Shown: piece after piece, positions 22,077 to 52,384 of the stretch
Position numbering within the stretch: position 1 is the stretch's first letter
Layout of the letters: the number at the start of each line of letters is the position of its first letter
NCBI GenBank assembly: GCA_034620365.1
Contig: JAQGEQ010000195.1
Span: 352,316 to 416,315, forward strand
Reading direction: 5' to 3'
Source of the DNA: Pegea sp. RAD2-039
Taxonomy: Eukaryota; Chordata; Thaliacea; Salpida; Salpidae
Length of the DNA: 64,000 nucleotides
Notes under the pieces: generated by a model
What the model was told of the DNA's origin: nothing
What the model saw: the letters and a program-made list of their open reading frames with translations, nothing else
The model's database searches: none
Made by a program: the position numbers and the translations under genes

Positions 22077-25000
22077 ATGGATGAAGATTTCTCAAATGTA
22101 AGAGTTGCAGTTAGGATAAGACCTCAAGTTGCTCGTGAAAGAATCCAACAAAGTAGAATTTGTACATTCGTCACAGATGGTGAACCTCAAATCACATTAG
22201 GGAAAGATAAAGCATTTACATATGATCATGTGTTTGATATGACAACAAACCAAACGACTTTTTACTCAACTTGTGTTCATCATTTGATTCAAAGCAGTTT
22301 TAGTGGTTATAATGCGACTATTTTGGCTTATGGACAAACTGGTGCTGGCAAAACTTATACAATGGGCACAACTTTTGATAATTCAACTCCAGAGCAACTA
22401 GGAATTATTCCAAGAGCTGTAAATCATCTCTTCGATGAGATTGCATCGCGAAGTGATGACGTCACTTTCTCTGTGTCCGTTCAGTTTATGGAGCTGTACA
22501 ATGATGACGTCATCGATTTGCTTGACTCGTCACGCGTCAGTGGTCAGCGAGCAAAATTGAAAATTCACGAAGACGCGAACGGTGATATTCAAATTGCTGG
22601 GATTACTAATCGCAGCATCAAAGAGGCGCGAGAAGCTCTAGAATTTCTTCGGGAAGGTGCCCTCAATCGAAGTACAGCTGCAACTGCAATGAACGCTGAA
22701 AGCTCGCGATCTCACGCGATTTTTTCGCTACACGTCATTCAACAGTCGATGACGTCACAACTTTCCGCTAAACTTCATTTCACTGATTTAGCCGGAAGTG
22801 AAAGATTGAAACGGACGCAAGCGACCGGAAGTCGGCTTCGCGAAGGGGTTTCAATCAACTGTGGACTCCTAGCCCTTGGCAACGTCATAAGCGCGCTTGG
22901 TGACGTCACAAAACGCAGTACTCACGTTCCTTATCGGGATTCGAAGTTGACACGAGTTTTACAAGACTCTTTGGGTGGGAACAGCCGGACTCTGATGGTG
23001 GCTTGTATCTCTCCTTCTGACGTGGATTTTATGGAGACACTAAGCACCTTGAAATACGCGAATCGCGCTCGCAACATCCGGAACAAAATCGTCGTTAATC
23101 AAGACTCGAACAGCAAACAAATCGAACAATTGCGCCAACAAGTGGCCAGCTTGCAACTTCAGCTCACTCATTGTCGATCTGTAGAAGGCGTAGGTGATTA
23201 TGACGTCATTCGAGAACGCGAGATGCTAGCAGATGAGAGTAGAGAGCTGAGATTAAAGTTAAAAGTGTTACAAGAGACAAATGCAGCTTTGAAGAAGCAA
23301 GTTGTGGTTGCTAGGTTACAAGAGAGTGAAATAGGAGGCTCAATTGATGAAATGGTGAAAGGATACATCGAAGAAATAGAAGATTTGAGAAGTAAGTTAA
23401 TCGAGAGTGAATCGATGTGTTCCGTCTTGAAGTCCAAGACAACAACTACTCTGGAATCGATGGGGAAGCCTCAGACCCCTTTGATGAATGTTTTGTTGCA
23501 AGCCAAGAAAGATATTGAAACGATTGAATATAAAAAACAGAATTCTCATAAAAAATGTGATGTTGTCATTACTGATGACGTCACAGATGATGATGTATTA
23601 GATGATGTGGAAGATGATATAGTTTATGATGAGGTCTTGGATGATAAAGATGAAGAAGAGCTTGCTAAATTATCAGAAGAAGTTAACATCAAGCAGAAGT
23701 TGGTTGATCAGTTAGAGTCGTTGCAGAAGAGGCTGGCTGGGATGCAGATACAATATGAAGAGAAGCTGAAGTTGATGTCAGATAAGATCAAGATCACTGA
23801 AAGTGAAAGAGATAAGATCTTAGAGAGTTTGGATTCAAAAAAAGAAGCGGAGAAAATTGATAAAGTTAGAGAGAGTTACAGTAAAAAGCTTGGCTTGATG
23901 AAAAGCGAGTTGAAAAAATTAAAAGAGGCTGAAAGAAATCATCAGAAAGTTCTTCAAGAGCGGAGCAAGAATGTTGTTCAGTTGAAGACACTGAAGTCAG
24001 AGTTGGCTAGGTTGAAGCAGTCTAAGGAGCAACTAGATAAGAAGATGAGAGAAGGAGAAAAGAGGAGTCGCGTCCAATCGATGAAGACATCGAAAGAGAT
24101 GATGATGTTGAAGACGAGTCATGTAAAGAAGATCTATGAGATTAAAAGATTGGAAAATACGAATAAGCAAAAAGATTTCCTGATGTCAAAAAAAATAAAG
24201 GAAATTGAACATCTTAGGAGTAGTCTGAAGAGGATTCAGAAAGAGCAAAATAAGATCAGAGGAAGACATTCTTTTAGTGGTGGAAATCGAAAAGAAGATT
24301 TCGAAATTGGAGCAAAGAATGTTTGGAGCTTGATCGAGAAGCAACTAAGAGAGGTAGAAGTGAAGAATGCAACAGTTGCTTCAATCGAACGGAGGATGAA
24401 GACTCTGTTAGACTCCAGGGATGATTTAAATAATCAGAAGAAGAGTTTAGAAGATACTTGTGCTGAAGATGAAGAAGCAATTGAAGCAAATTTAGATTTT
24501 GTTGAAAGTCAGCTTCAACAAAGCCAGATGGAGGTGATGCAGTTAGAAAAAAGTTGCTCAAATACTGATCAGATCTTGCAAATAATCAGTTCTTGTTCAT
24601 CAATTCCAGTTTCTAATTACATTTCAGTCAATTTGATGACAAAATTAGTTGAGAAGTTTACATCAGAAGCAATCAATTGTGAAAGAATTAAAGATTTTGA
24701 ATCAAAATTGAAATCAAGTGAAGAATCTTTTCAAAAAGCTCAACAATTAATTGAATGTTTACTTGAAACAAAACCCAAAACTTTTGATCATTCCTCTGAG
24801 ACTTCAAGTGAAACATCTCCAGATGATCCTCCTCTACATCTCTTCACAAAGACTGATCATCAAGATCACATGACAGCTAGTAGGTCTCGCCTAAAGATGT
24901 CCAAAACATCCACCAAAGATCTTCTTAATATTAAAGATGATCACTTCAAACGAAGAGGATCAATGAGACTTCGAATTGATAAAACTCTCGACCAACAAAG

Positions 25001-26114
25001 TGGACCACAACAGCAGGTGGTTTCCCCGTCCCTGAAACAACCTGAAGTTTTTTATCGTCTCATGACTAAACCTCAACAAACCAATATTCCAAATAAAGGG
25101 AAGATGTCACTGAACCATAACAAACTGTGTATGACGTCATCAGGTCTTATTTGCACCCACGTGGCAGAAGGACACAAAAAAGCGGTCCTTTGTGTCCAAG
25201 CTTCGGACCATCTGTTATTTTCAGGATCGAAAGATCGGACTGCAAAAGTCTGGAACATGGTGACCGGGCAAGAAATTTTAACCTTAAGTGGACATCCGAA
25301 TAACGTCAATGTGGTTCAACACTGTCCAACCACTGGTCTCGTCTACACTGTATCACTTTGTTACATGAAAGTTTGGGACATTCGAAGCAAAGCGTCTTGT
25401 ATTCAAGTTCTCAGTACATCGGGAACTCGATATTCATCGGCCGACTTTTGTAGCTCTATTTACCGCACGAATGTGATGGGAGACCACGATCAAGCCATCA
25501 ACGATCTGAAACTTTCACCTCGATCAAATCACGTCTTCTGTGCTTCGGGTACATCTGTTCTCGTGTGGGACTTGAACAATTATGAGGTGGTCACCAAGTT
25601 GACTGGGCATACTGGCAATGTCATGGCAATTGATGTTTTATCGCATGACAACGTGTCCATAGCAACCGGATCGAAAGATCATTATGTAAATGTGTACAAA
25701 TATGAAGATGTTCTTCAGTCGACCACCTGTCCCCCAAATATCACTTTTTGTCCACCACATATGGATGGAATCGAATCTCTGACCCATCTTCCACATCAAA
25801 ACATTCTGTTTTCAGCTTCACGAGATAAATCGATTCGTAAATGGGATATAGAATCCGAAAGACGTCTTCAGTCTATTTATCCAGCTCATAATAATTGGGT
25901 TTGTTCATTAGAAGTTGTTCAGAGCTGTAAGTTAGGTCTGGTCCTTTTATCAGGCGGTCGTAATGGTTTGTTAAAGTGTTGGGGTGTGGACCAGTTAGAT
26001 AGCTTAGGTGAGCTTCAAGCACATCAATCCACTATTAATTCGATGGCGTCCAATCGCGCTAATCGACTCTTTACCGCTTCTAGTGACGCGACTGTCAAAG
26101 TCTGGAAAATTTGA
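22077..26114 (+). CDS. KIF21-type kinesin with C-terminal WD40 repeats
   Basis: Kinesin-4 family plus-end motor; KIF21 proteins limit microtubule growth and work in axons and cilia (family knowledge). 1345 residues. The motor domain covers about 1-345: P-loop GQTGAGKT near residue 86, switch I NAESSRSH, switch II DLAGSE, then the neck region after YRDSKLTRVLQDSLGG. Long coiled coils run from about 345 to 900, broken by an Asp-rich stretch near 495-525 (TDDVTDDDVLDDVEDD), as in KIF21 relatives. From about residue 1020 there are WD40 repeats (GSKDRTAKVWNM, ASRDKSIRKWDI, ASSDATVKVWKI). Somewhat shorter than vertebrate KIF21. The whole protein is one uninterrupted exon, odd for this intron-rich region. 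AATAAA occurs at 26429, about 315 bases past the stop. Confidence 0.95.
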   Translation: MDEDFSNVRVAVRIRPQVARERIQQSRICTFVTDGEPQITLGKDKAFTYDHVFDMTTNQTTFYSTCVHHLIQSSFSGYNATILAYGQTGAGKTYTMGTTFDNSTPEQLGIIPRAVNHLFDEIASRSDDVTFSVSVQFMELYNDDVIDLLDSSRVSGQRAKLKIHEDANGDIQIAGITNRSIKEAREALEFLREGALNRSTAATAMNAESSRSHAIFSLHVIQQSMTSQLSAKLHFTDLAGSERLKRTQATGSRLREGVSINCGLLALGNVISALGDVTKRSTHVPYRDSKLTRVLQDSLGGNSRTLMVACISPSDVDFMETLSTLKYANRARNIRNKIVVNQDSNSKQIEQLRQQVASLQLQLTHCRSVEGVGDYDVIREREMLADESRELRLKLKVLQETNAALKKQVVVARLQESEIGGSIDEMVKGYIEEIEDLRSKLIESESMCSVLKSKTTTTLESMGKPQTPLMNVLLQAKKDIETIEYKKQNSHKKCDVVITDDVTDDDVLDDVEDDIVYDEVLDDKDEEELAKLSEEVNIKQKLVDQLESLQKRLAGMQIQYEEKLKLMSDKIKITESERDKILESLDSKKEAEKIDKVRESYSKKLGLMKSELKKLKEAERNHQKVLQERSKNVVQLKTLKSELARLKQSKEQLDKKMREGEKRSRVQSMKTSKEMMMLKTSHVKKIYEIKRLENTNKQKDFLMSKKIKEIEHLRSSLKRIQKEQNKIRGRHSFSGGNRKEDFEIGAKNVWSLIEKQLREVEVKNATVASIERRMKTLLDSRDDLNNQKKSLEDTCAEDEEAIEANLDFVESQLQQSQMEVMQLEKSCSNTDQILQIISSCSSIPVSNYISVNLMTKLVEKFTSEAINCERIKDFESKLKSSEESFQKAQQLIECLLETKPKTFDHSSETSSETSPDDPPLHLFTKTDHQDHMTASRSRLKMSKTSTKDLLNIKDDHFKRRGSMRLRIDKTLDQQSGPQQQVVSPSLKQPEVFYRLMTKPQQTNIPNKGKMSLNHNKLCMTSSGLICTHVAEGHKKAVLCVQASDHLLFSGSKDRTAKVWNMVTGQEILTLSGHPNNVNVVQHCPTTGLVYTVSLCYMKVWDIRSKASCIQVLSTSGTRYSSADFCSSIYRTNVMGDHDQAINDLKLSPRSNHVFCASGTSVLVWDLNNYEVVTKLTGHTGNVMAIDVLSHDNVSIATGSKDHYVNVYKYEDVLQSTTCPPNITFCPPHMDGIESLTHLPHQNILFSASRDKSIRKWDIESERRLQSIYPAHNNWVCSLEVVQSCKLGLVLLSGGRNGLLKCWGVDQLDSLGELQAHQSTINSMASNRANRLFTASSDATVKVWKI

Positions 26115-26845
26115 TCTCTTTCATTGTGTTTCCTTGTGACGTCATTGTGTTTGTATCTTATGCTGGTGATTTATTTACTCCATTTATTTACTGCCGACTA
26201 TTTTGGCTTTTTACTATTCTGGTTCCTTATTATTTTGGCTTTAAAGTATATAAACTTTTATGTCTCTTTTGTTTTATTATATTAGGACCAAACATTAGCA
26301 TTTTAAATCTGCACAGGCCATCATCATACATGACGTCATCCATTTATTTTATGACGTCATTTGCAATCAGCAAACCTATTTTTTTACGCCATGTATCTTT
26401 CATAATCATTTCCTCAAAATTTGATTTGAATAAAATTTCATTTTTTAGCTTTTGTGGTGAAACTTTTTGTTTTTTAAAATGTTTTTAGAAGAACTTTAAA
26501 GTTTTTATAGAAATAATTTTGATATAAAATTCACCATAAAAAACTTGTTGAAAAGAAAAACTAAAAATTTTAATATTGAAATTTTACAACAATTTTTTAA
26601 GCAAATAAAAAAACAGAAATTTAACACCTCCATAAAAGCTAAAAGTTGAAAAGTAAACAAGAAATTTGAGAAGATTTTTTCACATTTTATTTTTGACATT
26701 AAAACCAACAAAATTTTTACTGAAAATTCTTTTTTTGAAGTTTTACAAAAAATATAAATTAACAAAAAGTTTTTTTTAAAAACACTAAAATCCACCAACA
26801 TGCAACATGCTGCTGGTTGCTAGGAAACATGCGTCGATGACGTCA

Positions 26846-28685
26846 TCACGCCTTCTGCTCTTCCTCCTTCGGTTTGATGACGTCAGCCTGCTCAATTACA
26901 ATCGGAATCGTTTTTTCGACTTCCAAATCAATGACGTCATCAGCTGGATGGCCGTTAGGCACATGACCATTTACCCAAGCAACCTTCGTCTCAACACCGT
27001 TGCTAGGATATGGAGATGGTGACCGCGTAGCGTTTTTAGTCCATGCATCAGTACTTAAGCTAGTCGGCGGAACATAACTAAAAGGAAAAAGATCCTGAAG
27101 CTAATTTTAACAAGTGCGGATGAATATACCCCTTTCCTTGCGTTACAAGTGACTCATCAAAATAATTGTCGGTGAATCGAAGCATTTGTTGAAGCGCGCT
27201 TAAGGCCAAAATATCGACACAAGTATCAAGTTCTATTTCATGAGTATAGTTCTTGATGGGTAGTATATGACAAACAGGAACTCCAACCTTTGCGCTCGCC
27301 TGATAAACAATTTATTAACATCTCAACTTCCAGCTCATTTGCATATTTACCTTTGCAATTAATCGCTGGACGATGTAGCTTCTGTAAACCAATGAGATTT
27401 CTTTCATCGTATACGAACAAACTTGATCAATTTTACTGATCAAAACCAGCAGTGGAATTCCTAAAATCCGAAATATTTAATTATTGATAACTATTTACAG
27501 AAACTTTTTGCTGATAACTTTGAACTTTTTACTTGGAAATTAAAAATTAAAAAATCAAAAGAACCTCTGGCAGTAATCTTCTTTCTCATCTCTGATAACT
27601 TCTTCTTTAGTTCAGGTTCCATATTTTCAATAGTTGTGGAATCTAACACAAATACACAGCAATGCACCTTGTCGGTGAGTGTTGGATTCTTCTTGAATCC
27701 GTGCATATCAGCTGAGATGTTCCCTTTTGTGTCAAACTGTTTAAGAAAATTAGAAATAGTTTCACATCTGAGAGACCTTCAACTACCTGATGATTGTCAG
27801 GGACATGTCCATCAAGGATGTAAGGGAGCTCGGCTGGATCGAATCCTTCACCAAATCCTTCTTCAATCCCCATCGTGTCTACAATCTCAAAGTTTAAAAC
27901 TTTTCCTTCTCTTCCGTCTCTGATTTGATAACTCCTCATCTTGATATCAAATGATAAAGATCAAAAAGTGATGAAGATCAAAAAGTGATAAAGAACAGGA
28001 AGTGATAAAGAACAAGAAGTAAGAATATCAGGAGGTGATGAAGATTAGGAAGTGTTAAGGATCATTAAAAGATTAATAATCAGAAACTTTTACTTTTGTT
28101 GTCACGGTTCGTTGATCATCAGGACTTCCAACAACTGCTTGAGCAGTCACGTGATTACGAAAGATTGAATTAATGGTGTTGAAGAAAGAAGATTTGCCAA
28201 CATTTGTGTGTCCTAGCAACAAGATTCGTGCGCTTCGAACTCCAACTTGCTCTAAAGGACGGTACTGTCGGATTGTTTCAATCAAATCAAATCTCGTTCT
28301 GAAACAACAAACTTGTGACGTCATGATTGATGACGTAGTGATGACCTTACTGATCTTTCCATTCCATAGGCCTCCATTGATGCTTTACAAGTGCAGATGC
28401 TGTTCCGCCTGATTTCAAATGTCGTTAAATTCAAAATTTAAGAATTTTATAGTTTAGAAATTAGAAATTAGAAATTCAGAAGTGAATTTTAAATTTTAGT
28501 CTAAAGCTAATTATTTTTAGAAATCTTTAAAATAAATCTACTTCTTTTTCAACAAACTTGTAAGTTTTGAAATTAAACATTCATAAACATAAAATTTTCT
28601 TCATTATTTATTCATAAGCAAATTAGCACTTGAGCAGTAATTTGGTCACGTTCAAACTCAACTTACTTTGAATAATGTTCCCCAT
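26846..28685 (-). CDS. IFI44-like dynamin-type GTPase (8 exons)
   Basis: Assembled exons 28685-28667, 28408-28351, 28298-28094, 27939-27787, 27736-27565, 27460-27351, 27287-27112 and 27077-26846 total 1125 bases in frame (374 residues). The family match is to interferon-induced protein 44: Walker A GHTNVGKSSFFNTI, then YQIRDGREGK, DTMG (G3), HCCVFVLD, and SKID at the G4 position, followed by the alpha-helical end LALSALQQML. Vertebrate relatives are antiviral and interferon-induced; the role here is unknown. The protein starts MGNIIQSG, which resembles an N-myristoylation signal. The last exon adds an unusual tail (STDAWTKNATRSPSPYPSNG ... KPKEEEQKA) not known to me from IFI44; two TGACGTCA palindromes there are read as codons. 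AATAAA on the minus strand lies about 155 bases past the stop. It converges on the kinesin gene. Confidence 0.87.
27945..28090 (-). repeat. Intronic CACTTCCTGATCTTCATC-type repeats
   Basis: In the third intron of the GTPase gene, several imperfect units related to CACTTCCTGATCTTCATC follow each other, read on the transcribed (minus) strand. The same unit type fills an intron of the CELSR gene at 46985-47344. Confidence 0.7.
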
Positions 28686-31600
28686 GATAGAAAATTACGA
28701 CCTACAAAATCCGTCAATTTTAATATTAAAAAAGATTTTTTAGCAAAAAAAGATCTTAGCAAATGAAATAACGAGTTATTAAGTATAGATTAAATTAAAT
28801 TTAGTATCAAAAACTTTTTTATGATCATTGTAAAACTATTCTAAACAAAAGCAAACCAATGTAATTCAAAATTTAGACATTTTTGATATTGTAACCTAAA
28901 ATAAAATCTGTAAATCAAACTTTATTAAAAACAAAATCTGAAGTTTTATGAAATAAACTAAGCAAAACTAAAGAAGGATTTTGCTGTTTACAGAACTTCT
29001 GTAAGTTAGTAGCTGCAAAACAAGAAACTTCTAACTTGCATTATTCATTATTTAAAAGTTGACTACAACTGATAAAAATTACTGACAAGAAGATGTTATT
29101 CTATAATTCATCAATACTCTTTTCAAACTTATCTTTCACTTTATCACCAGGTTTAATTGAACGATCTGTATTTTTTTATTTATTCCCTGTTTTATTTTCT
29201 TTAAATCGTTTTCTAGTTTCCTAATTCTGATAATTAATTTAAAAACGAACAATAAAATTATTAAAAATCTTTAATTACAACACCTAACTTCATGAAGAAA
29301 ATTATTCTTGAAAAAGCTTTCAGTAAATTTGGATCTTGTACATAAATTTTCAATGATAATTAATGAAAAAATTACGAGAAGTTTTTGATCTAATTCTTTT
29401 ATTTAAAATGCATTTTCTCCAATGAAATAAAAATTTTTGAAGAACTTCAATGTTGAAGTCATATTTACAATTGAGAACAAGCTCACAAAATTAAAAAGTA
29501 TTTTTACTACTAATAAAAACTAACTTTTGATTTTATTATTTTCCTGTAAAAAAGTCTAAAAAATACCAATTCATCCAACAGTACTTACTACCATTTTTCT
29601 ACTCCTATATTTAAAACTTAAAGTGAACAATTGGAAGTTTTCTAGAACCCCTTTTTATACCTATTAGGCCTCGAAAAAAAGTTTGAAGTACTTTAAATTT
29701 TTGTTTCGGATAAATTTTTAATCAGAGCTTTTTTGAGGCAATTCTAGAAGTAAAACTTTAATTTTTAATACTCAGTTTTTAAGTAGCATAAATAAAGATA
29801 ATATTTGCCAGAAAGCTTTAAAAACCTATTTGATTATACCCCTTCTTGATTACAATACATTTAAATATATAATATTTGTTAGCTCTAATTTTAATTATAG
29901 GCAAAAATATTTCAATATGTTTTATAACATTTTAAAATAAAGCAAATGTGTACTTAGTCATATAATTAAAAGTTTTTTTTTTTAATTTAACGTTTATTTA
30001 TAATGTTTTGTTTCATAACAAAACCTTAAAATAAACCCACAGCTGTATCATGTGGTTAAATGTAGACTAAAAGCTCAAATACTTGAATCGAAACACCATA
30101 ATTGTCCCAGGAAAGAGTAATTCAATTTAACTGTTTGTTAATTTGCTAAACTTCATAGTTTTAAAGCCATAAATACTTAAAAAAAGTTCTTTAACGAGGT
30201 AATTCAAAAATTTAATCTTTCCGTTGAATTGTTAATCAAGGAAACGATTGATGATTTTAAATATGTATAATGCGCCTACTTCTAGTTACCATAATACTTT
30301 CAAAGTATTTCCTAAATTAATCGCAAAAGTTCCAAGAAAATTGTTATTAATGAAGACTCTCAGTGGCATTTTAAAATGTCACCTTGTAAATATCTTTAAA
30401 CTATATTTTAATTTTAATATATTAATATTTAGAAGATTGTCTTGAATAAAGCATTTTTCGAAAATATTTAAATTTTTAGAAATAGTAATATATTAAACAC
30501 TTAATTACACTATTATGACTTCCTTATACTTTTAAAAATCGCATTTAAATTTCCTCAAGAATTAAGGTTGTTAAAATAATTTAAAAAGTATATTTTTACT
30601 AAATTAAACTTTCATCGTGATTATGACCCATTTTCTTATTTAGATTCTTTTCATAATTAGATATTCAAACATATACTTTAATTCAAGATTTATAAATAGA
30701 ACAAACTTTCTCTTAAATTAAAAATGAGTACAATAAACGTGAACGTTTAATTCAACTGAACTTTTCAATTAAAGTTCGTAATAAATAAAAGAAACTACTT
30801 CAAAAAAGTTATATTTTTTTACTAAATAATGTTTTAAGCTTATTTTTATTTAATTCTAATGAACAATCTTATTGTTTTTATAATATTTGTATTTTGCGGC
30901 AAGAAAATTTATATTACTTTTTCTGCGCATGCGCGTCAATTACAATTCTACATTAATTTTTCTGTTCCGTTTTAAGGTTGGATTTTTTTTGTTAGAAATG
31001 TTTACTTAATGAATGGGTGTGGTGTTTTATTTGAAATTATTCTAACATTTTGTTTTAGAATTCATTTTTAAGTTCTTTTTACTGTTAGAATTTAGTTTTA
31101 GATTTTTAATGATTTTATTTTTGATATTTTAACTTTTTAAGCTGGCGACGTATCAAAACCTTAGAGAGTTTTTTTTCGTATTTTCAAAAATTATTTCAGT
31201 TTCAAAACTTCTAAATAATATTTACTTCTACTGATCTCCACTTAAAAAAAATCAAGTTTTAAGCTACTTGTTTTTAAAAAAAAAAATTATTGAGTGTAAT
31301 TTGATAGAAAGTTGCATATTTTGAAGAAATTGGATAAGTATTTATTTTTTTCTCAATTTCAAATTTTGTTCTTTGAGTTGGAATTGTTTTTTTTTGTACT
31401 TTAGTTCTCATTTGTTTCTTTATTTCAGTTATTTTCTTTTAGATTGCTTCTTTTGAGATTAATTGCTTATAATTTAAATTTTTCAGAGTTGCTTAATATT
31501 TCTTCAAATGAAATTTTAATGATTTATTTAATAACTTTTACTTTGTAGTACTTCTTTAGTTTTTCAGTTTTATTTTTCTCTGATGCTTTTTAAAAATATG

Positions 31601-40600: not shown

Positions 40601-43600
40601 TGTCTTGGATGTAGATGATAATCAACCGATCTTTGAAAGTGATCATCTGATATATGACGTCCCTGAAGATCTTCCTCCTAATAGCGAAATTGCTCAAGTA
40701 CAAACTCTCACAACAGGGAAATCCTTTAACATGATCTTCCACAGATTCAAGCTCATGATCCAGATGTATCATCAAATAATCTCACTTATGAGATCGGTGA
40801 TGACCCCTATGCTGTGAGTATGTTCAGTTTGGATCGCGTCTCGGGAAGATTAGTTCTCATTCGTCAACTGGACTTTGAAAAAACTCAAAATTATTCGTTT
40901 ATTGTCAAAGCAATTTCGGGCGATTTCATTGGCCAGGTAAATATCACATGTCTGGATGACCTTTCAACCTTTGAGTAGCTGTTCTTCCTTACTTTTTACT
41001 TCCAACACGCCCCATAAACACTTCAACTTGTCCCAGGTCGAGGTAAACATCCGGGTCACCGACTGCAACGACAATCGTCCAATCTTCGCCGACTTTGAGA
41101 TCCATTTCAATAACTATCGAACGAATCAGCTTCGTTCATTCTACTCCGAGCTGATTGGTCGTGTTCCAGCACACGATCCTGACGTTACAGATCGATTGAG
41201 ATACAAGTGAGAAGAAGAAGACTAACTAGAAAAGAGATTTAATCTTGGATGTTGCAGATTCATCTCCGGAAATGATGAGAGACTTCTGTTGATGGATGGA
41301 GACGGAAGATTGAAATTGAATAACTCAATTGATAGCGATCGACAATTTACAGTTCCAATCACAATTCTTGTCTCAGGTACTTTCCCTTGCCACATGCAAG
41401 TGTGTTTCCATGGCAACCGACCTTACAGATGGCTTACATGACGTCAACGCTACATGCTTGCTGCACGTGATCGGAATCAGTGACGTCATGTTAAGTCACA
41501 GCATCACAGTTCGCGTGCTGAAGATGAACGCAAATCGCTTTCTATCTGAACTGATGTACAAATTCACTTCCGCTCTTGCTCTTATTCTTCAAACTGATCA
41601 GCAGGTCAGTTGATGACGTCATCATCGATCTTCTGAACCTCCGAGACACTTCACCTGACATCATTTGGGATCCAAGATTATTTGGAGACTGATTTAATTT
41701 TAAGATTTTGTTCACAATATCTTTTTGACTTTGATCTCATTCCTATCACCTTCACCTAAAATCTGAGTCTTCTTGAGATCCTCTATCTTTGATCCTTCAT
41801 CTGATCATCTTCTCGCAGAACATTTTCATCTTCAACATCCAAAATGACACAGATGTGGATCGGGAAGTTCTAAACGTCAGTTTTTCAGCTCTCCAAAACA
41901 ATTCCAACAATTTCTTCAGCTCCAAGCATCTTCAAGATCAGGTAGAGTCTTAAGATGTTTGAAACAGCTCATAATCTTCTCATCTTCAGGTATATCTGAA
42001 TCGTAGTAAGCTCACTTCACTTACAAAGATGAATGTACTTCCTTTTGATGACAACATCTGTCTGCGGGAACCTTGCCAAAACTACAAGAGATGCGTCTCC
42101 ATCTTATCTTTCAACAGCTCTGCTCCCTTCATATCTTCTTCCAACATGTTCTTTCGACCCATATACCCTGTTCACACTCTAAAGTAGGTCTTTGTAGCAT
42201 CCTCATGATCATCTTCATCAACTGATCTTTATCAGATGTGAGTGTCCCATTGGATTCACAAATGAAGCAAGCTGTACAGATGAGATTAATCTCTGCTATT
42301 CCAAGCCTTGTTTAAACGGAGGAACATGTCAACCACTAGAGGGCGACTTTTATTGTGAGTGCTCCGAAGGATTTACAGGTGAGATCAGCATCCAGAAAGT
42401 CCTGAATCTTCATCAAGAATCTTTCAGGAAAGGATTGCAACGTTGATTTGAAGAGAGGAAGCTGTACTGATCACCCAGGGATTTGTAAAAATGATGGAGA
42501 ATGTGTTGATTTAAGTGGAGGAGGATTTGAATGTAGATGTGGATCTGTAGGAGTGTCTAGGAAGAACGAGTTTACTTCTCTTTGTGAATTGAGGAGTCGG
42601 CAATTTAAGGCTGGCGATTTCTTAATCTTACCTGGAATTATCAACCAATGGCATTTCGAGTTATCAATTAGGTAGCTAAGTCACCTGATCTTCATTTGCT
42701 CTTTTTTCATCTTCTGATATTGTTCTAAAATTTTTTTGATCCTCATCTGATGCTCATCTGATCTTCATTTAATCTTTATTTGGTCTTTATCTCCTCTTCA
42801 TATAAATTTTATCTGATCTTCATTTGATTTTCATCTTTAGCTTCTCAACAATCGAAGCAAATGGTTTGATCTTTTACAATGGACGTCTCAACCAACAAAA
42901 CGATTTTCTGGCCCTTGAACTGGTCAACGGACAGATCCACCTCAACTTTTCAACTGGTCAGCAAACATCTCTGGCGGACCCTCACTCAGAGATCCTACTC
43001 AACGACGGCGATTGGCACACAGTTCATCTTCAGTACTTCAACGAGGTAGTCCTCATCTCATTTCTAATCATCTCATGATGACGTCATAGAGAAAAGCGGG
43101 TGATCTTCGGTATGGAGTCCTCAGTCACTACGGACCATCTCAAAACAAGGTTGTCATAGTAACTATCGACCCTCATCGTTGTGAAGAGCCAATCAAAACA
43201 TCTAATTGTTCGCGTCGCGTTCAGCAAACAGGAGTGAAAAAGTTGGTGACGTCATCACCTCTTCATCACATGCTCATCTTTTTACCTGACAGATCGCTCG
43301 ATCTGACGTCACCGCTTCTATTGGGGGGAGTCCCTGACTTGCCAGAGGAGTTCCAAGTTCGTTCAAAACATTTCACCGGATGTCTTCGTGATTTGGTGAT
43401 TGATGGGCGTCGAAGCGATTTGTCGCGTTTCATCGCAAATCGCGGCTCCAAACCCGGATGTGATCCAATGCGTGATCATTGTGACGTCAGTAGTTGTTAT
43501 AATGGAGGCCAATGTCGGAATCGATTCAATGGGTTCAGCTGCGCATGCGCAGAAGGAACTACAGGCAGAAAGTAAGTGACGTAATGAGTGATGACGTCAT

Positions 43601-46600
43601 CTGATCGGTTTGTGACAGCTGTGAACGAAGAAGCGCGTTCATTCGTCGATTGTTTGGGAAAGGGTTGCTAAGATTTCTCGATATCGGGGAAGTCCCGGAG
43701 TTTGATGGAAGTTGGAATCAGGAAATCTCGTTTCGAACTTTCCAGAAGAATTCCATCATCAATGAGTTCCGTTTCCAGGGTGACCAGATGCTGACGACCC
43801 GGATTGAGGTCTTTGAACTTCTTCATCTTAAGGATCATTTCTAAATCCTTTTTTTAGATTTATGAAGGTTTTTTGAAATATTCAATTCGCATTTTGAAAC
43901 GCGATCACTTCCGGATCTTCAACATCTCAAAAGTCTCTGATGGTGATTGGCATCATCTACAAGCTAATTGGCTGCGAGATGATGACGTCATCAATATACG
44001 ACTTGAAATAGATTTCGGTCTTCAAATAGTACGTCAACACTGATGACTTCATTAGCACTAAATTGTCCATTTGCAGCTTGATCTTCAACTTCCGGTTGAC
44101 GATTCGCGTTTAATGATGACGTCACTAACAATAGGAGGATCGATGGGCGATGATGAAGCGATTTCATCTTTTGACGGCTGCATTCAGGTCGGTTGTGACG
44201 TCATTTGTTTCCGGTTTTGACGTCATCGATGCTTTGTATAGAACGCGGAATTTGGTAACTTCCATTTGACGTCACAAGGACTTCATGCGGAATTTGGGGC
44301 TACACCGCTTACCACGTGCTCCACCGATGATGTATGCGCATCGAGTCGTTGCCCTGACAACAGCGACTGCGTTGCTAAGTGGACCAGATACGAATGCCGC
44401 TGTCACCCAGGTAACCACTATCCTCTTAGCCTAGCAAGATGCATTATTTTTGGTTGCTAGGTTACGTGGGAGTCAATTGTCGGTCAATTTGTGAGCTAGA
44501 ACCTTGTCCGCTGAACGCGCGATGTTTGTTGGATAGTAACGTTGTTCAGGGCTACATATGTCGCTGTAATCATAATTACATCGGTCCACAATGCCAATTT
44601 CGCCTTGAAGGTGCTTGTCCACCCGGTTGGCATGGTAACGATGGATTATGTGCCCCATGTAATTGCTCATCACTTCTAAACTTCGATTTGATTTGTGATT
44701 CAAGAAGCGGGGCGTGTAAATGTGCCCCAGATTATTATTATCATTCACCTAGCAGCCAATGTTTACCTTGTAATTGTTACCCGCCTGGTTCCTTGTCTTC
44801 CGGTTGTCAAGATGAGACCGGAAGTTGTAGTTGTCGACAAAATGTTTATGGACCGCGATGTGATCTATGTTCGTACGAATTTTCTGAGGTTTGACGCTAT
44901 TTGTGACGTCATTAAGCGCTTAATCGATTCACTGACGTCATAGGCGGGTCGAGATGGTTGCCAAGTGATGAAAGATAAGTCTCAGTGTCCAAAATCACGC
45001 GTGGACCACATTGTGTGGCCAAGGACACCTACAGGTGGTCAAGATATACAGAAGTGTCCAATTGGTGCTACTGGCTTCGCAATGCGTCTATGTCGCGTCG
45101 AAACCGGATGGCAGGCGCCCGTCCTCACTAATTGCACCTCAGACCACTTCATCCAGTTCTTCAATTTTCTTCGTGACTTCAAACGTCACAAAATCGCGTT
45201 GACGCGTCCAATGTCGGTCACGACGTCATTAAAATCAAATATACTTTTCTGATTGTGACGTCATCAGGTTAATTCGCGTCGCTGAGAATTTACGCGAAGC
45301 AGCTGAAGCCTTAAAAAAGTTTTATGGAAATGACGTCGAAATCGGAAGTGACGTCATCAAATTGTTGTTGAACTACGAAAACTCTCGATCTGGCTTCGAA
45401 CTGATTACGTCACGTGACAACACATTCACAGGTAACTACAGTGATGACGTCAGAATGAGTTTTGTGACGTCATCAACTCAGAAAACTTGGTTCGGGCGAC
45501 TTCAGCATTGATGAATAACGTCACCAACCAATTCTGGTACAAAGGCGTCGGTAAACGTGTTCCGGGTCTTTCTTTGCCGCTATTACTGATGACGTGGGAA
45601 GATTACGTCACTACTTTGCTCCTCAATCTCGATCGAATCCATCTGAATCGTGATGTTGACGTCATTGCTCCCAACTTCCATTTTCATCTGAAAACGCTTC
45701 AGTCATCACATGATGACGTCATGGGCTTGAAAAGAAGCGATTCGCCGGAAGTAGCGATTCGATTTCCGGCAGACATATTTGCTAAGAAGTCAAAGAGGTT
45801 GAAGCGTTCAATTTCACCAGTAGAAGGCGCTATCGCTGTTGGAATCGCGGTGTATCGCGGCCTGGAAGAACTTTTGCCGGTTTCTATGCAAGTGGCGCGA
45901 AAATATGTAAAAACGAAACTGTAAGAAACAATTTTTAAGAAATCTCATCACTAAAATATATTTGGCTTTCAGTCCAGCTGTTAACAGTCACGTGATGACT
46001 TTTGTGGTCAGTAGACGTGGTCCACAACCCCCCAGTGGTTCAATGTACTTCGACAAAAATGGCATTTTATTTGGAGAGGCCAAATTTGAAATTACTTTCA
46101 AACTACTTCAACTTGATCACATTGTAGCTCCAACTTGTGTCTTCTGGAACTACTCTTCCACCAGGTAACTGCCGATGACGTCACAACCACGATGACGTCA
46201 TCATCATCTTGTAGAACCTCACTGGCGACTTTTGGGTCATGGTCACCAGAGCCTTGTAAGAAATCACATTCAAATCGGAGTCACGTGACTTGCAGATGCT
46301 CAAAGAACGGAACAGTCGCTGTAATTACAGAAACACAAGTGATCAGGTGATGTAGATGACGTCATTACAGCGTTAGTGATGTCATCATGTGTTGTTGAAC
46401 AGTGTGATGTCACAAGCCTCAGTTTATTCAATCTTAATCGTTGCTGTCGCTGTGTCCGCGTTGCTACTAGCAACTTTGGTTATCTCACAAATTTGCTTAT
46501 CTTCTGTGACGTCAGTGCGATCGGTTGTCAACCGAAACATCGCGCTTTCATTCGCATTCGCCATACTCTGTTTCCTTACTGGTGTCCAGGTAAATATCAT

Positions 46601-48716
46601 TTTATCTACTCATACGTCACTGATGACGTCATCAACAGCAAACTAGTGACGTGTACTGGTGTATGGCGTTCGCGGTCGCCTTACACTTTTTGGTGCTCAG
46701 CAACTTTTCCTGGATGGTTGTCGATGTCCTACATATCTATCGAACTCTTGTTGAACGTCGAAACGTGAACAACGGACAATCGCGGTTCGTTGATGACGTC
46801 ATCGTGTAGTTGTGATGACGTCATCGAGTTGTTGTACAGGGTTTATTACTTGATTGGTTGGATTTTGCCGTCTGTTATAACAGCTTTATCACTTGGGTTA
46901 GAAGCAAACGGATTTGGGAATCACGAATTCTGCTGGTTGTCATTCAATGATCTTCTTATTTGGAGTTTTATCGGTTAGTGTCTGGTCCTCATCACTTTCT
47001 GATCTTTATCACTTCCTGATCTTCATCATTTCCTGATCCTCGTCACTTTTAGATCTTCATTACTTTCTGATCCTTATCACTTCCTTATCTTCAACACTTC
47101 CTGATCTTCATCACTTCTTGATCTTCATCACTTCCTGATCCTCATCACTTCCTGATCCTCATCACTTCCTGATCTTCAGCACTTCCTGATCCTTATCACT
47201 TCCTGATCTTCAACACTTCCTGATCTTCATCAATTCCTGATCCCAATCACTTCTTGATCTTCATCACTTCCTGATCCTCATCACTTCTTGATCTTTAACA
47301 CTTCCTGATCTTCATCACTTCCTGGTTCTCATCACTTCTTGATCTCTTGCAGCTCCCACTCTCATCTCACTCCTTGTCTACCTCTTTCTCTTTGGGATGT
47401 CTCTGAACTTCTATTTGGTATCGAAACGTGCGGACATGCAACGTGACGTCATCAAATACGAAATGAAGACGTCATTCATCATCTGTATCGGCTGTGTGTT
47501 GTCATGGTTACTAGCATCGTGCGCAGTGAATTTCAATTCGTCGATTTATTTCTATTTGTTTGCCTTCGTCATCCTTACACAAGTAAACAACTTTCTGCTT
47601 GTTTTTCTGCCTGTTTTTATCTTGTTTCCTTCACTTAGAGCACTTTTATGTTTCTGTTGAACCTTTGGAAGAATGTAGAAATGAGAGAAGGCTACAAAAC
47701 GTTTAAAAAGAAACGAATTCACAAAAAGCAACGTTTCAATCAAACATTTGAACATCTTCTGTCACCGGTTAGTGCTGATGACGTCATCGTCATCATTTGT
47801 GACATCATCGCTCTTTCAGGCGGGGCGTACCCCTGATACGTCATTAGCGATGAATAGTCACATGATGAGATTTGGAGATCCTTCCAGCAAACCATTCAAC
47901 ACAACCATGATGGTATGATTACATAGTTGATGACGTAATAGTTTTATGACGTCATTAACGCTTTTCAGCTGCCAGACTTTAATGACGATTTAAGCGATAG
48001 TTACGATGAGAGCGATGATTCGATGCAATCTTCGAGAAGCTCAATGTCTTTGGATTCATCTTCATACTCAGATGCAGATGATGAAGATGATGAAGAAGAA
48101 ATCACTCAGAGGAACACTCTGCGGAATATTCGCAACTGTCGCGTCATACCTCCATCTCCTCCTAATAAGAAAATCAAATCAAATAGTCTGCATCCACGAT
48201 TTAGTGAAGAAGAAACGCCTACAAGTTGGTTGTAGATAGTTTGAGATGGTTGTAAATGGTTTGAGATGGTTGTAAATGGTTTAATATGGTTGTAAATGGT
48301 TTAATATGGTTGTAAATGGTTTAAGATGGTTGTAAATGGTTTGAGATGGTTGTAAATGGTTTGAGATGGTTGTAAATGGTTGTAAATGGTTTAAGATGGT
48401 TGTAAATGGTTTGAGATGGTTTAAAATGGTTGTAAATGGTTTAAGATGGTTATAAATAGTTGTAAATGGTTTGAGATGGTTTGCAATGGTTGTAAATGGT
48501 TTGTAATGGTTGCAAATGGTTTGAGAAGCATTAAAAAATTGTATTTTCAGTGAATGGAGTTTTTCAAAATGGAGATTTAGAGATGACTACTGCTTCTGTA
48601 GATGATAAGAAGATTCCCGATCACGATGAAGACGAGTAACAAACAAATAAATCTTCTCACCCGACTTTTAGTGTTGACAATTTTGTTTCAGAAATAGTGA
48701 TGAAACTTCATTGTAG
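37675..48716 (+). CDS. CELSR/Flamingo seven-pass cadherin (adhesion GPCR)
   Basis: Core planar-cell-polarity receptor. Chosen start at 37675 gives signal peptide MKFFFLFFIFCFT; the frame is open further upstream but AT-rich. The first large exon (to about 39988) holds cadherin repeats with DVNDN ends; nine repeats are recognisable up to about 41.4 kb (several DxNDN, DRE-like LDRE, LDFE). Then EGF-like (CYSKPCLNGGTCQ), laminin G (42.6-43.5 kb), EGF (CYNGGQCRN), laminin G (43.6-44.3 kb), EGF, laminin-type EGF (CNCYPPGSLSSGC), hormone-receptor motif (44.97-45.15 kb), GAIN domain, GPS (CVFWNYS ... HVTCRCSKNGT, 46.12-46.34 kb) and seven membrane helices (46.41-47.64 kb). The cytoplasmic tail is short and acidic-serine-rich. 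Splicing at 48225 joins exons 48551-48635 and 48692-48716 and ends DETSL; without it the tail ends TPTSWL. AATAAA at 48831. Confidence 0.93.
41700..41815 (+). repeat. Low-complexity GATCTTCATC-like intron repeat
   Basis: Loose repetitions of TGATC plus a pyrimidine tract within a CELSR intron. A weaker relative of the array at 46985-47344. Confidence 0.5.
42675..42838 (+). repeat. CTGATCTTCATTTGATC-type intron repeat
   Basis: An intron of the CELSR gene, between the two parts of the first laminin G domain, is built largely of degenerate units such as CATCTGATCTTCATTTGATC. It ends at the acceptor before SFSTIEANGLIFYNG. Confidence 0.65.
46985..47344 (+). repeat. Tandem array, 18-bp unit CTTCATCACTTCCTGATC
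   Basis: About 360 bases made of roughly twenty imperfect copies of an 18-base unit, filling the CELSR intron between membrane helices 5 and 6 coding segments. The sense strand is pyrimidine-rich and the array runs up to the 3' splice site. Confidence 0.9.
48228..48530 (+). repeat. Tandem array, unit ATGGTTGTAA / ATGGTTTGAG
   Basis: About 300 bases of alternating ten-base units (ATGGTTGTAA and ATGGTTTRAG) fill the penultimate CELSR intron. The array begins right at the potential donor GTTGGTTGTAG and contains in-frame stops, so retention of this intron would shorten the protein tail. Confidence 0.92.
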
Positions 48717-51700
48717 AAAAATGCCAAAATTACCGGATAATGACGTCATCTGTACTTCGCGGTCTGCTGCTTTCTCTTTCATTGTGATAAATTAAAATTA
48801 AGTGACGTCATTGTCTCTTATTTCAACACAAATAAAATTTGTAGTGAAAAAAAGAGTTTCTAATGAAAAAATTCAAATCATCGACGTTGTAAAAATCATT
48901 TTTCTGTTTTTTTATTTTTTTCTATGTTCGTTTACTGGTCGAAATAAAATGAATTTTTTTGAAATAAAAATTTCTGAAAATGTTCTTTTTTAAATAATTG
49001 ATAATGTGAAAATGAAGAAATTTGTTTTTAGATTGCTTCATATGATTTATTTATCTATTTGTCATCCTTAAAACATTTTCTATTTTCAAATTTTAATATT
49101 GGTCAGAAATAATTTGCTATTGGCTAAATATTTTTAGATTTAAATAAATGTTTTGTTTCCAATAAAATTAATTTTTTTATTTGTGAAGTACACTAAAAGG
49201 TTCTTTTCAAACTTTATAAATTTGAAATGAAAAATAAGATTTAAATTTAGAATAATTTGATGTAAAACATGAAGTCAAAACATAATATTTCTGATTTAAT
49301 TTCTAGTTTGTTTTAATTTACAAAATATTCTGAAAAAAACAAATTTATTTAAAAGTTTTTATCAAATCTTTAAAAATATTTTTATTTTACAATTTTACAA
49401 TTGGATTTTTAATAAAGTTAACCTTTCAAAAATATTCCATCAAAAATTTCTTTTCATAAAGTTGTTGTTTTCTTTGATTTATTTTTTAACAATAAAAGTT
49501 TTTGAATAATAACAGCAGAAAATCTGCAGGAAAATTAATTGGTTCAACTTGGTTAGAAGTCAATTCATTGAGAAGCTCGCGAGTTAGTGGTTACCATGAC
49601 AACCAACAATTGTGAAGTCTCTTCTTATTCATTATGTCACGTCACCACATGTGACGTCATCACATTAAGCTCTCTACTCCACAGCACTTTTGGTGGTCGA
49701 TTTTATGGTTTTCAAACAGAAAAAAACACAGAAATTTGAATCTAATAAAAAGTTGAGAAAGTTTCACAAAAAATTTAACAAATTTTGATTGGCTAAAAAA
49801 TCTCTTTCAATTTTCAAGGCTTTCTTAATTAAAAATTTTTAAGATTTTTAAATTTAATTTTTTTTAACTTCCAACATTAATTGTCGATGATGCCATCGTG
49901 GAAAAGCTTATCGACCGACCAATTAAAATGAGCTGAATTTTCAGCATTTTAATCTTACCTATTCGTTAATCTATTTGAAACATTTATTTTTACTTAATCT
50001 TTAATAAAAAAGAAACATATTCTAAACTAATCACAGATCTAGAAAGATGGTTTGAAGAATTGACAAACTTTTATTTTGCAATATTCAGATGTTTGTTGGA
50101 AATATCTTCAACAGCACATCGAGATATTGCTAATAAAAATTCGTGCGACCAGTCAGCAAATATCCAGTAAACAGTGGCCCTCTGATAACTAAAAATCATT
50201 TAACAACCAGTAAACATCTAATGACTAGCAACTAGTAGATAACCAACAACCATCCAATAACACAAAAAAGTTCAACTAAATCTTTAGCTTTCAAAAGAAC
50301 TTAATTATATATTGTTGGCGCTTTTTTTTCTCTAACGGATTTCATTAATTAAAAACAAAATAATTTTCAAACTGTAACTTTGGGTGGAGCAAAGATAAGC
50401 TAACTCACACAAGGCAAACAAACTGTTTACTGAGCAACATTTTATGTTAATTATTACTCATCCTCATCTCAATAGTTGCTTCAACTAAACTCAAAGTCCA
50501 AGGCTAATTGTCTTCAGACTGAAATTGAAGATTAAAAATTAACTAAAACATCTTTGATAAGAGTCAACTTTTATTGGCTCAATTGCAGAAAACAGTTTGT
50601 AAAAAATGATTTAAATGAAATGGATTTTATTTTTGATAAGTTAATAAAAATTGAATGACAATGTCAACTTATGTTTAATGGAGAATCAACTTTCATCAGT
50701 TATTTATTAAAATTCAAATCAAATATTTAATAAAACGACCATTTAATAGCATCATCAATGTTTACTTCCACTTATAACTTTTCTATCTCCTAAATTTGTT
50801 CAAACAAATATTGTTGAACAAATTATTCATCTTCAAAAAAACAAATATGTCAAAGAACAAGTTACAAACAGATTGCAAAATTAAAAGTTGGTCTTTGTCA
50901 GTTATTCTTCGTTAACTACAAAAAAGCTTTAAAATTAAATGTTAGCCTGAAACACTTTTGTGATCTCTAATTCATTATTTCGTATCGGAATAGAAAATCC
51001 CTTTCAATAAATGATAACTACATAAAATATTAAAACAAAACCAAAATAAGAAGTGAGTAGTGAGAAAAATAATTTAAAAGTAGAAATTTGACAAACTGCT
51101 GCTAATCTTATATAATAATTCAATTTTCATCATAAGAAACATCATAAAACTTTCAAAAAACTTCTTTTAAACTTTTTAAGTTTTTTAAATAAATAGCTTA
51201 AATACAATCGATAAGAGCACCATGTCTTAGTTGGTTATAGCGTCATTTTAGTAAACAGAAATCTTAGTTTGACTTTGAGGGTGTCGTTTTATGATTTACA
51301 AAATTCTTTAATAAGAAAGATTTAATTTAATTACAATAAATCTAGTTTTATGATTTTTTTCCTCTAAAACTAAAGATAAATATTTTGTTGGTAATTTTCA
51401 AGTATTTTTGAGACAGACATTGTATCAATTTTTCGAATTTTTCAGTGAATGATGACGTCACTATAATATACAAATGAAAATGTTCAATCTTGAAGAAAAA
51501 GGGAAATATTCATAAAACCATTTTTGTTTTGTGACCACAATTTTTCTTGTGGTCTTTAGTGGTGTTCCCAAGGCAACTATTGCTACTCTAATCTTTTTGA
51601 TATATTTGAATAGTATATCAGTAGAGTATTTTACCGCTTATGTAAATGTGTTGTCAAGCTCCTATGGTGCCTGAAATACAAGTCTGTAGTCGTTTATTCA

Positions 51701-52250: not shown

Positions 52251-52384
52251 AGTTTGGATTTCTTTGTCTATCAGTCTTTAAATTACAAAAAAAATGTTTA
52301 TATATTTTGAAAAACTTAAAAAAAAAATCTTCAAATTTATTAATTTATTCTTCTAAAAACTGCGGTACAAAAAAAGGAGCAACA

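What the first reader, a model, noticed from the sequence alone, without database searches (positions are those of the whole stretch)
22440..49660. Dense, sharply bounded field of TGACGTCA palindromes
The CREB/ATF-type palindrome TGACGTCA, often extended to TGATGACGTCAT, recurs dozens of times in exons, introns and flanks of the kinesin, GTPase, delta-catenin and CELSR genes. It is nearly absent from 1-18000 and from 52000-64000, although those parts also contain genes. Even AT-rich introns and 3' regions inside the field carry it. Base composition alone would not expect an eight-base CG-containing palindrome at such density. It may be a spreading short sequence, a mutational or repair bias, a chromatin or binding-site domain, or a replication-related signal.
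Basis: seen in the sequence. Interest (0 to 1): 0.75.

Follow-up and report, generated by a model that had tools for sequence, protein, structure and literature searches.

The report
Tunicate genes saturated with CRE palindromes
In a sea-squirt-like animal's genome, one eight-letter palindrome that gene-control proteins of the ATF/CREB kind bind is repeated tens of thousands of times, crowded into the exons and tiny introns of certain genes that, judging by their CpG content, escape DNA methylation, for reasons not yet clear.

Summary
The window has 87 TGACGTCA (0.64 expected); 83 lie in 22440-49660, against 0.3-11 expected from local Markov models. It is not one local domain: the 105.7-Mb genome holds 27,792 copies against 969 of the reversed control, and 67% of TGACGT hexamers are full palindromes, against 5.6% for the control. 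The genome is a tunicate's, by its cellulose synthase-GH6 gene. The consensus is TGATGACGTCATCA with nothing beyond, the ATF/CREB type; AP-1 and TTACGTAA sites are not enriched. Enrichment follows CpG content: 16-, 36- and 205-fold in CpG-poor, middle and CpG-rich blocks of 16 motif-blind loci. Sites crowd 52-bp introns and also exons, where they exceed synonymous codon shuffles (6 v 0.29, 3 v 0.06, 18 v 1.40). Decay products are few, and sites have no GC peak of their own. Best reading: a genome-wide iterated palindrome, comparable to cyanobacterial HIP1, kept in unmethylated genes through binding by a methylation-sensitive bZIP dimer. Whether selection or biased conversion multiplies it is open. 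A Ciona paper hints that it is shared among tunicates.

The parts
22440..49660 (.). Field of 83 TGACGTCA sites (3.05 per kb), extended consensus TGATGACGTCATCA
22065..26111 (+). KIF21-like kinesin, open over 1349 codons; 6 sites in 22068-23700, none in 23701-25127, one at 25132
   Evidence: Pfam kinesin, KIF21A domains and WD40; sites and CpG
26137..28323 (.). Seven further sites in the 3' end of the kinesin region and downstream DNA (26137 to 28316)
   Evidence: no gene confirmed here
28401..32600 (.). AT-rich spacer without a site
32480..35299 (+). Delta-catenin-like gene: 13 predicted exons (2112 bp, 3 sites) and 13 introns of 50-88 bp (760 bp, 10 sites)
   Evidence: Arm repeat; own exon model; counts
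32979..33036 (+). Example of a 58-bp intron carrying two sites
35028..35079 (+). Example of a 52-bp intron carrying two sites (a 23-bp tandem duplication)
35901..38000 (.). AT-rich spacer without a site
38099..41604 (+). Cadherin-repeat exons of a CELSR/Flamingo-like gene: 18 sites in 3104 bp of exon; 15 of 27 Asp-Val pairs are written T-GAC-GTC-A
   Evidence: Pfam cadherin and CELSR
41605..48224 (+). Rest of the CELSR-like gene (laminin G, EGF and GAIN matches), dense with sites except 42001-43000; exon model unreliable here
48741..49659 (.). Last three sites of the field, in AT-rich DNA 3' of the CELSR-like gene

Best explanation
The field is one patch of a genome-wide, iterated palindrome: about 28,000 copies of the canonical CRE/ATF site in a tunicate genome, concentrated in genes whose DNA has kept its CpGs. 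Shown: the enrichment, its specificity, its presence in exons as well as introns, and its tie to CpG content. Inferred: (1) an ATF/CREB-type bZIP dimer that binds the unmethylated site occupies these genes in the germ line; (2) occupied sites keep chromatin open and DNMT1 away, so the gene stays unmethylated and both CpGs and sites persist, which feeds back on itself and gives bounded patches; (3) each site adds a little, so weak selection in a very large population keeps nearly perfect copies wherever the protein code allows. Step 3 could be replaced by biased gene conversion (first rival).
For: Genome counts 27,792 v 969 control; 27,792 of 41,551 TGACGT are full sites v 969 of 17,369 for the control. 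Consensus (A/G)TGACGTCA(T/C) with outer TGA/TCA and nothing further. In CpG-rich blocks AP-1 sites are at 0.6x and TTACGTAA at 0.9x, TGACGTCA at 252x; ETS words 17-23x and RFX half-sites about 4x. O/E by CpG class 24, 65, 252 in all sampled DNA (7, 36 and 176 sites) and 16, 36, 205 in the 16 motif-blind loci (3, 9 and 48 sites; 93 instead of 205 without the densest locus). At equal GC 0.33-0.38 the density rises 0.12, 0.36, 1.47, 5.14 per kb with CpG o/e. Perfect sites outnumber one-mismatch forms 270 to 122 in dense DNA. Excess over synonymous shuffles in all 3 gene models. DNMT1 present. Ciona has no promoter bias of the CRE (PMC1796609 passages).
Against: No methylation, chromatin or binding data exist here; CpG o/e is only a proxy. 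Three sites per kb through exons and 52-bp introns is far more than known regulation needs. Stretches with normal CpG but no site exist: 30001-31000, 37001-38000 and 52001-55000. The E-box TCACGTGA is enriched in CpG-poor blocks too (5 v 0.2 below 0.6), so enrichment of a factor word need not follow CpG. In five tandem arrays the motif columns are not clearly better conserved than others (8 of 272 v 30 of 748 mismatches). In the Ciona study two CREB-like sites were dispensable and the motif lay mostly outside the minimal enhancers (PMC11001920 passages). Only 12 bZIP matches were found (a lower bound, no comparison genome), so nothing points to an expanded factor family. Only 16 motif-blind loci (160 kb) were sampled.
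Confidence: 0.4

Rival explanations
1. Molecular drive without function: heteroduplex repair or gene conversion favours the allele that carries the palindrome, for example because a bound dimer shields its own spot from meiotic breaks, so that alleles without it are converted. Sites then pile up wherever germ-line DNA is open, in exons and introns alike.
For: Presence in exons and introns alike and few half-made sites. In fission yeast the related ATGACGT bound by Atf1-Pcr1 makes a recombination hotspot, and the site itself lies in about 70 bp free of visible breaks (PMC9775316 passages). Tandem arrays in dense DNA contain the motif in 13 of 38 cases v 3.65 expected, as if breaks or slippage occur beside it. 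DNA uptake sequences are argued to fill genomes by such drive (PMC1939737 abstract).
Against: No GC peak around sites compared with matched control words in the same domains (0.396 v 0.413), so no local GC-biased conversion is seen. Ordinary hotspots tend to lose their motif (recalled). The same yeast review says that the full octamer TGACGTCA inside ade6 is not bound by Atf1-Pcr1 and does not raise recombination, and that few breaks occur at a CRE of fbp1. The array expectation ignores that delta-catenin introns are richer in sites than its exons.
Confidence: 0.25
2. Ordinary transcription control: homotypic CRE clusters that act as enhancers of cAMP- or stress-responsive genes.
For: The word is the canonical CRE with the expected flanks, and ETS, E-box and RFX words accompany it. 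In one Ciona enhancer (Cnot11) the motif encompasses a core that is necessary for activity (PMC11001920).
Against: About 28,000 copies, 18 of them in 3.1 kb of CELSR coding exon. In Ciona two CREB-like sites were dispensable and the motif lay mostly outside the minimal enhancers.
Confidence: 0.15
3. Survivorship: the palindrome arises everywhere but is lost by deamination where CpG is methylated.
For: The strong tie to CpG content.
Against: The decay products TGATGTCA (8 v 3.9) and TGATATCA (11 v 5.0) are only about 2-fold enriched in blocks with CpG below 0.6, and TGATGTCA is more enriched (16 v 3.5) in the CpG-rich blocks; survival cannot raise a word some 200-fold above its own trinucleotide content. 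It may still sharpen the patch borders.
Confidence: 0.07
4. A dispersed repeat: a transposon end, a minisatellite seed or tandem duplication carries the word.
For: 52 of 291 sampled sites lie in tandem arrays, with units of 17-46 bp that contain the word.
Against: No conserved sequence beyond 3 bp on either side of 87 sites; the delta-catenin part found only itself in the genome; 239 sites remain after array masking.
Confidence: 0.05
5. An architectural or replication signal: loop anchors, origins or homologue pairing marks, in the manner of the lineage-specific loop motifs of ctenophores and placozoans.
For: Non-bilaterians have their own loop motifs, and binding to the ctenophore one is inhibited by methylation (PMC12221973 passages).
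Against: Sites fill whole gene bodies rather than points; no clear helical or nucleosomal period in their spacing.
Confidence: 0.08

Closest known systems
Canonical cAMP response element / ATF-CREB site (TGACGTCA)
   Same: Same octamer and the recalled flank preference; CpG-centred. Methylation of that CpG can inhibit CREB binding (PMC1796609 abstract).
   Different: In mammals CREs are most frequent within 150 bp upstream of the start site (same source); here they fill exons and introns, at about 28,000 copies in 106 Mb.
HIP1, highly iterated palindrome of cyanobacteria (GCGATCGC)
   Same: One palindromic octamer over-represented genome-wide; a tie to DNA methylation is proposed there too (PMC4390886 abstract and section list).
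   Different: A bacterial chromosome with orphan methyltransferases specific for the word. Here an animal, strong clustering in patches, and the general CpG enzyme DNMT1.
DNA uptake sequences of Haemophilus and Neisseria
   Same: Short word far above expectation, explained by molecular drive (PMC1939737 abstract).
   Different: The drive there is uptake in transformation; I know of no such process in animals.
TRTGACGTCA motif of Ciona notochord regulatory regions
   Same: Same core; 10 occurrences in one 1.8-kb region of another tunicate (PMC11001920 passages).
   Different: Reported there as a shared motif of enhancer regions; no genome-wide or coding enrichment in the passages I read.
ade6-M26 hotspot of fission yeast (ATGACGT, Atf1-Pcr1)
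   Same: Overlapping bZIP half-site; 48 of 87 window sites have A at -1 on the + strand.
   Different: Known for recombination, not for genome-wide accumulation; the full CRE octamer in ade6 is reported inactive (PMC9775316 passages); recombination is untested here.

Membership tests
ATF/CREB binding site (CRE) | Octamer TGACGTCA flanked by purine on the left and pyrimidine on the right (flanks recalled) | tested here: met
   75 of 87 have A or G at -1 and 77 of 87 have T or C at +1
ATF/CREB binding site (CRE) | 8-bp ATF/CREB spacing rather than the AP-1 7-bp or PAR/C-EBP palindromes | tested here: met
   In CpG-rich blocks TGASTCA 0.6x, TTACGTAA 0.9x, TTGCGCAA none (1.3 expected), TGACGTCA 252x
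ATF/CREB binding site (CRE) | Bound by a bZIP factor in vivo | not testable with these tools
   bZIP genes are present (12 matches); no binding data
ATF/CREB binding site (CRE) | Concentration just upstream of transcription starts, as in vertebrates | tested here: inconclusive
   Sites fill exons and introns of three gene models, but starts were not mapped. Ciona lacks the bias (PMC1796609 passages)
HIP-type iterated palindrome | One palindromic word in large genome-wide excess, coding DNA included | tested here: met
HIP-type iterated palindrome | A DNA methyltransferase specific for the word | tested here: inconclusive
   DNMT1 and further methylase matches; their specificity cannot be read from sequence
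HIP-type iterated palindrome | Cyanobacterial genome | tested here: not met
   Tunicate
CpG island | CpG o/e above 0.6 against a depleted background | tested here: inconclusive
   Motif masked: 0.83, 1.18 and 1.02 in the three site-dense parts; 0.70 and 0.69 outside the field, 0.71 and 0.89 in the spacers: above 0.6, but so is the background
CpG island | G+C above 50% at a promoter | tested here: not met
   GC 0.38-0.43 in the three dense parts, across gene bodies
M26-type recombination hotspot | Raises meiotic recombination | not testable with these tools
   No local GC peak at sites, weak evidence against
Transposon-borne repeat | Homology of copies beyond the core | tested here: not met

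The most novel reading that the evidence does not exclude
An animal genome contains a self-propagating short palindrome. Germ-line binding of a methylation-sensitive bZIP dimer biases repair or conversion in favour of alleles that carry the site, so that CRE octamers spread through unmethylated genes, rewriting synonymous codons and filling 50-bp introns. This would be a eukaryotic counterpart of HIP1 and DNA uptake sequences, the first that I know of.
Probability: 0.2. Interest if true: 0.92.

Novelty: new variant of a known kind. Interest (0 to 1): 0.72.

Why it matters
A transcription-factor site at 29 times its reversed control genome-wide, and present inside coding exons, means that some force acts on DNA words strongly enough to shape codon choice in an animal's genes. 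If it is selection, methylation-sensitive factor binding may help to set which genes stay unmethylated in mosaic-methylated animals, a long-open question. If it is drive, it is a new mode of genome evolution in animals. In either case, counting CRE sites in tunicate regulatory DNA may say little about function, which bears on enhancer studies in Ciona.

Tried and rejected
Strand-biased domains: the place list looked one-stranded beyond 2.04 Mb of contig 1. Locus L009 from that part has the word on both strands (8 and 4), and the whole-genome counts are balanced (4739 v 4890), so this is a listing effect.

Site-centred GC-biased conversion: GC rises towards sites, but matched control words in the same domains show the same level; not supported. 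Isolated sites were too few to judge (12).

Decay graveyard in CpG-poor DNA: only about 2-fold excess. Helical, nucleosomal or codon periodicity of spacings: none convincing (33 of 273 neighbouring pairs were dropped as tandem-like). Allelic or paralogous copies of the field for gain/loss counts: the query 32400-36000 found only itself. For the L010 query 68 places matched, one of them itself and nearly all others in a part without sites. Nematode SL1 RNA (its control rang nowhere, so no evidence of absence) and mitochondrial cox1 gave nothing for naming the organism.

Literature: ten searches were made; those that bear on this enrichment are, and their listings showed no paper that reports it genome-wide (lists were capped at 15-30 rows; most papers seen only as titles and abstract openings). 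sought the species (nothing), HIP1, M26.

Exon and intron classes rest on a home-made splice model. Its kinesin 3' part and the CELSR part beyond 41604 are unreliable and were left out of exon counts. Six of the 26 own sequences used (L009-L011, L027-L029) were chosen because or where sites are dense, and L012-L013 with the site list in view; one search repeats the CpG test on the 16 others that were picked blind.
Full report
WHAT WAS CLAIMED AND WHAT IS THERE. There are 87 in the window against 0.64 expected from dinucleotide shuffles, and 83 of them in the named field. Local Markov models of order 1, 2 and 3 trained on the field with the sites left in expect 0.55, 0.94 and 11.4; with sites masked, 0.43, 0.31 and 1.1. 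Outside the field 4 are seen against 0.16-0.26 expected. The field is patchy: two AT-rich spacers (28401-32600 and 35901-38000) have none, and the dense parts follow the kinesin, delta-catenin and CELSR genes. In 295 kb of this genome with tandem arrays masked (a sample that includes loci chosen for density), TGACGTCA has 239 copies against 1.47 expected; ranked by O/E, the next palindromic octamer with more than two copies is the E-box TCACGTGA, 18 against 1.42.

GENOME-WIDE. The window is the end of contig 40 of a 105.7-Mb assembly in 387 pieces. That genome holds 27,792 TGACGTCA, while the same word read backwards occurs 969 times. Extrapolating the trinucleotide expectation of 16 motif-blind loci gives about 446 for the genome, an excess of about 62-fold. 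TGATGACGTCAT occurs 4739 and 4890 times on the two strands against 37 and 27. Of 41,551 TGACGT hexamers on one strand, 27,792 (67%) are completed to the full palindrome; for the reversed control it is 969 of 17,369 (5.6%). The 16 blind 10-kb loci held 0 to 62 sites each, 90 in all, variance-to-mean ratio 42, or 5.9 without the densest one.

WHICH ORGANISM. On contig 14 a cellulose synthase-type glycosyltransferase exon is followed on the same strand by glycosyl hydrolase family 6 exons (one GH6 piece above and one below its cut-off). As I recall, this fusion is known among animals only in tunicates. Introns of 50-58 bp make up 11 of 13 in the delta-catenin model. DNMT1 is present. I could not name the species.

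ANATOMY OF THE SITE. Across the 87 window sites the consensus is TGATGACGTCATCA, with signal only 3 bp either side of the octamer; 75 of 87 have A or G at -1 and 77 of 87 have T or C at +1. This is the recalled preference of ATF/CREB-type bZIP dimers. In CpG-rich blocks AP-1 sites (TGACTCA, TGAGTCA) are at 0.6 of expectation, TTACGTAA at 0.9 and TTGCGCAA absent (1.3 expected), whereas TGACGTCA is at 252; the half-changed TTACGTCA is at 10 and TGACGCAA at 3. Of the other 15 ACGT-centred palindromes there, only TCACGTGA (11 v 0.8) is raised on more than two copies; CCACGTGG, CGACGTCG and GCACGTGC have O/E 8-10 on one copy each. Also raised in the same DNA are ETS words (CCGGAAGT 10 v 0.4) and RFX half-sites (GTTGCTA 20 v 5.0). 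Genome-wide, TCACGTGA occurs 4614 times against 237 for its reversed control, and it is raised in CpG-poor blocks as well (5 v 0.2).

EXONS AND INTRONS. In the delta-catenin model, 13 introns (760 bp) hold 10 sites and the exons (2112 bp) 3; single introns of 52, 53 and 58 bp hold two sites each. In the cadherin part of the CELSR gene the exons (3104 bp) hold 18 and the introns (453 bp) 2. Of 27 Asp-Val pairs there, 15 are written T-GAC-GTC-A; in the kinesin 5' part it is 5 of 9, in delta-catenin 2 of 5. Shuffling synonymous codons within each gene, which keeps protein and codon usage, gives 0.29, 0.06 and 1.40 sites on average, where 6, 3 and 18 are observed in kinesin, delta-catenin and CELSR; none of 2000 shuffles reached the observed number in any of the three. 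In the kinesin motor domain, by my reading of the alignments to solved kinesins, sites lie mostly in variable loops; one lies in a conserved stretch that already reads Asp-Asp-Val in its best match. So in exons the word looks made by substitutions that the protein tolerates, not by insertions (inference).

WHERE SITES LIVE. Density follows CpG observed/expected (motif masked) more than GC. At GC 0.33-0.38 it is 0.12, 0.36, 1.47 and 5.14 per kb as CpG o/e passes 0.5, 0.75 and 1.0, and even bins under 24% GC reach 2.5 per kb where CpG is above 1 (6 to 15 bins per cell). Enrichment over each class's own trinucleotide content is 24-fold below CpG 0.6 (7 sites), 65-fold at 0.6-0.85 (36) and 252-fold above (176) in all sampled DNA. 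In the 16 blind loci alone it is 16, 36 and 205 (3, 9 and 48 sites), with 93 in place of 205 if the densest locus is left out. Along the kinesin reading frame CpG runs 1.21, 0.83, 0.50 and 0.85 per kb bin while sites run 4, 2, 0 and 1. CpG depletion is a usual sign of germ-line methylation and tunicates have mosaic methylation (recalled; PMC1796609 calls the Ciona genome fractionally methylated), so I infer that sites live in unmethylated genes. Site-free stretches with normal CpG (30001-31000, 37001-38000 and 52001-55000) show that CpG is not the whole story.

TESTS OF MECHANISM. (a) Decay: if sites arose everywhere and died by deamination in methylated DNA, TGATGTCA and TGATATCA should abound in CpG-poor blocks; they are only about twofold up (8 v 3.9 and 11 v 5.0). 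(b) Freshness: in 102 kb of dense DNA (arrays not masked) there are 270 perfect sites and 122 one-mismatch forms, 32 of which chance would give, so sites are well kept or newly made. (c) Local GC-biased conversion: GC next to sites (0.396) is not above that next to matched control words in the same domains (0.413). (d) Duplication: 52 of 291 sampled sites are in tandem arrays. In dense DNA, 13 of 38 arrays with periods of 14-70 contain the motif against 3.65 expected by random placement, an expectation that does not allow for differences between introns and exons. (e) In five such arrays the motif columns are not clearly more conserved than the rest (8 of 272 v 30 of 748 mismatches). (f) Spacing shows no convincing helical or nucleosomal period.

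INTERPRETATION. The common denominator is a methylation-sensitive bZIP dimer. The model I rate highest (0.4, of which the descriptive half is nearly certain and the causal half is inference) is that germ-line binding keeps these genes open and unmethylated, which keeps CpGs and sites, and that weak selection in a large population holds nearly perfect copies. The closest rival (0.25) is biased conversion without function. It is suggested by the fission yeast M26 element ATGACGT, where Atf1-Pcr1 binding makes a recombination hotspot while the site itself stays free of visible breaks, although the same review reports that the full octamer in ade6 is inactive (PMC9775316 passages), and by the molecular drive argued for bacterial uptake sequences (PMC1939737 abstract).

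WHAT IS KNOWN. The octamer is the canonical CRE. A nine-species survey found no promoter bias of the CRE in Ciona, unlike vertebrates (PMC1796609 passages). A 2024 Ciona study found TRTGACGTCA as the one significant motif shared by its regulatory regions, 10 times in one 1.8-kb region but mostly outside the minimal enhancers, and two CREB-like sites there were dispensable, while in one enhancer (Cnot11) the motif covers a necessary core (PMC11001920 passages). So another tunicate may show the same thing, read there as an enhancer motif. Cyanobacterial HIP1 is the nearest phenomenon (PMC4390886 abstract). My searches of the paper library listed no report of this enrichment (capped lists). I class it as a new variant of a known kind: a known binding word in a HIP-like mode of occurrence.

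Noticed in passing
window 18106-18268, 18995-19157, 19482-19644 (+): Three U1 snRNA genes; a TGACGTCA begins exactly 71 bp upstream of the first and the third (18035, 19411) but not of the middle one.
   Followed up: partly
genome C57:819728-821071, C57:825001-826344, C249:1740707-1742050, C32 (three places), C52:9209-10639: Seven DNA methylase matches in uninterrupted frames of 832-873 codons, three of them strong; part of one (L155) matches DNMT1. Multi-copy uninterrupted frames of this kind look odd for an animal and may be retrocopies or carried by mobile elements; not tested.
   Followed up: partly
whole genome and sampled loci: The palindromic E-box TCACGTGA is also about 19 times more frequent than its reversed control (4614 v 237), and the ETS word CCGGAAGT is 23-fold up in CpG-rich blocks (10 v 0.4).
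   Followed up: partly
L026 3427-3848, 4933-5074, 6019-6252; L028 8139-8312; L009 5076-5337: Minisatellites whose unit contains TGACGTCA; the first 10 kb of contig 200 has 62 sites.
   Followed up: partly
window 54228-55999 (+): Two ORFs matching an endonuclease (below its cut-off) and a reverse transcriptase, probably a non-LTR retrotransposon; site-free.
   Followed up: no
window 58319-63989 (+): Cysteine-rich frames that look like a large secreted VWD/C8-type protein; only the C8 domain at 63510-63989 was tested. Site-free.
   Followed up: no
window 46989-47345 and 48227-48521: Two tandem arrays (17-bp unit, 21 copies; 30-bp unit, about 10 copies) inside the field without the motif.
   Followed up: no
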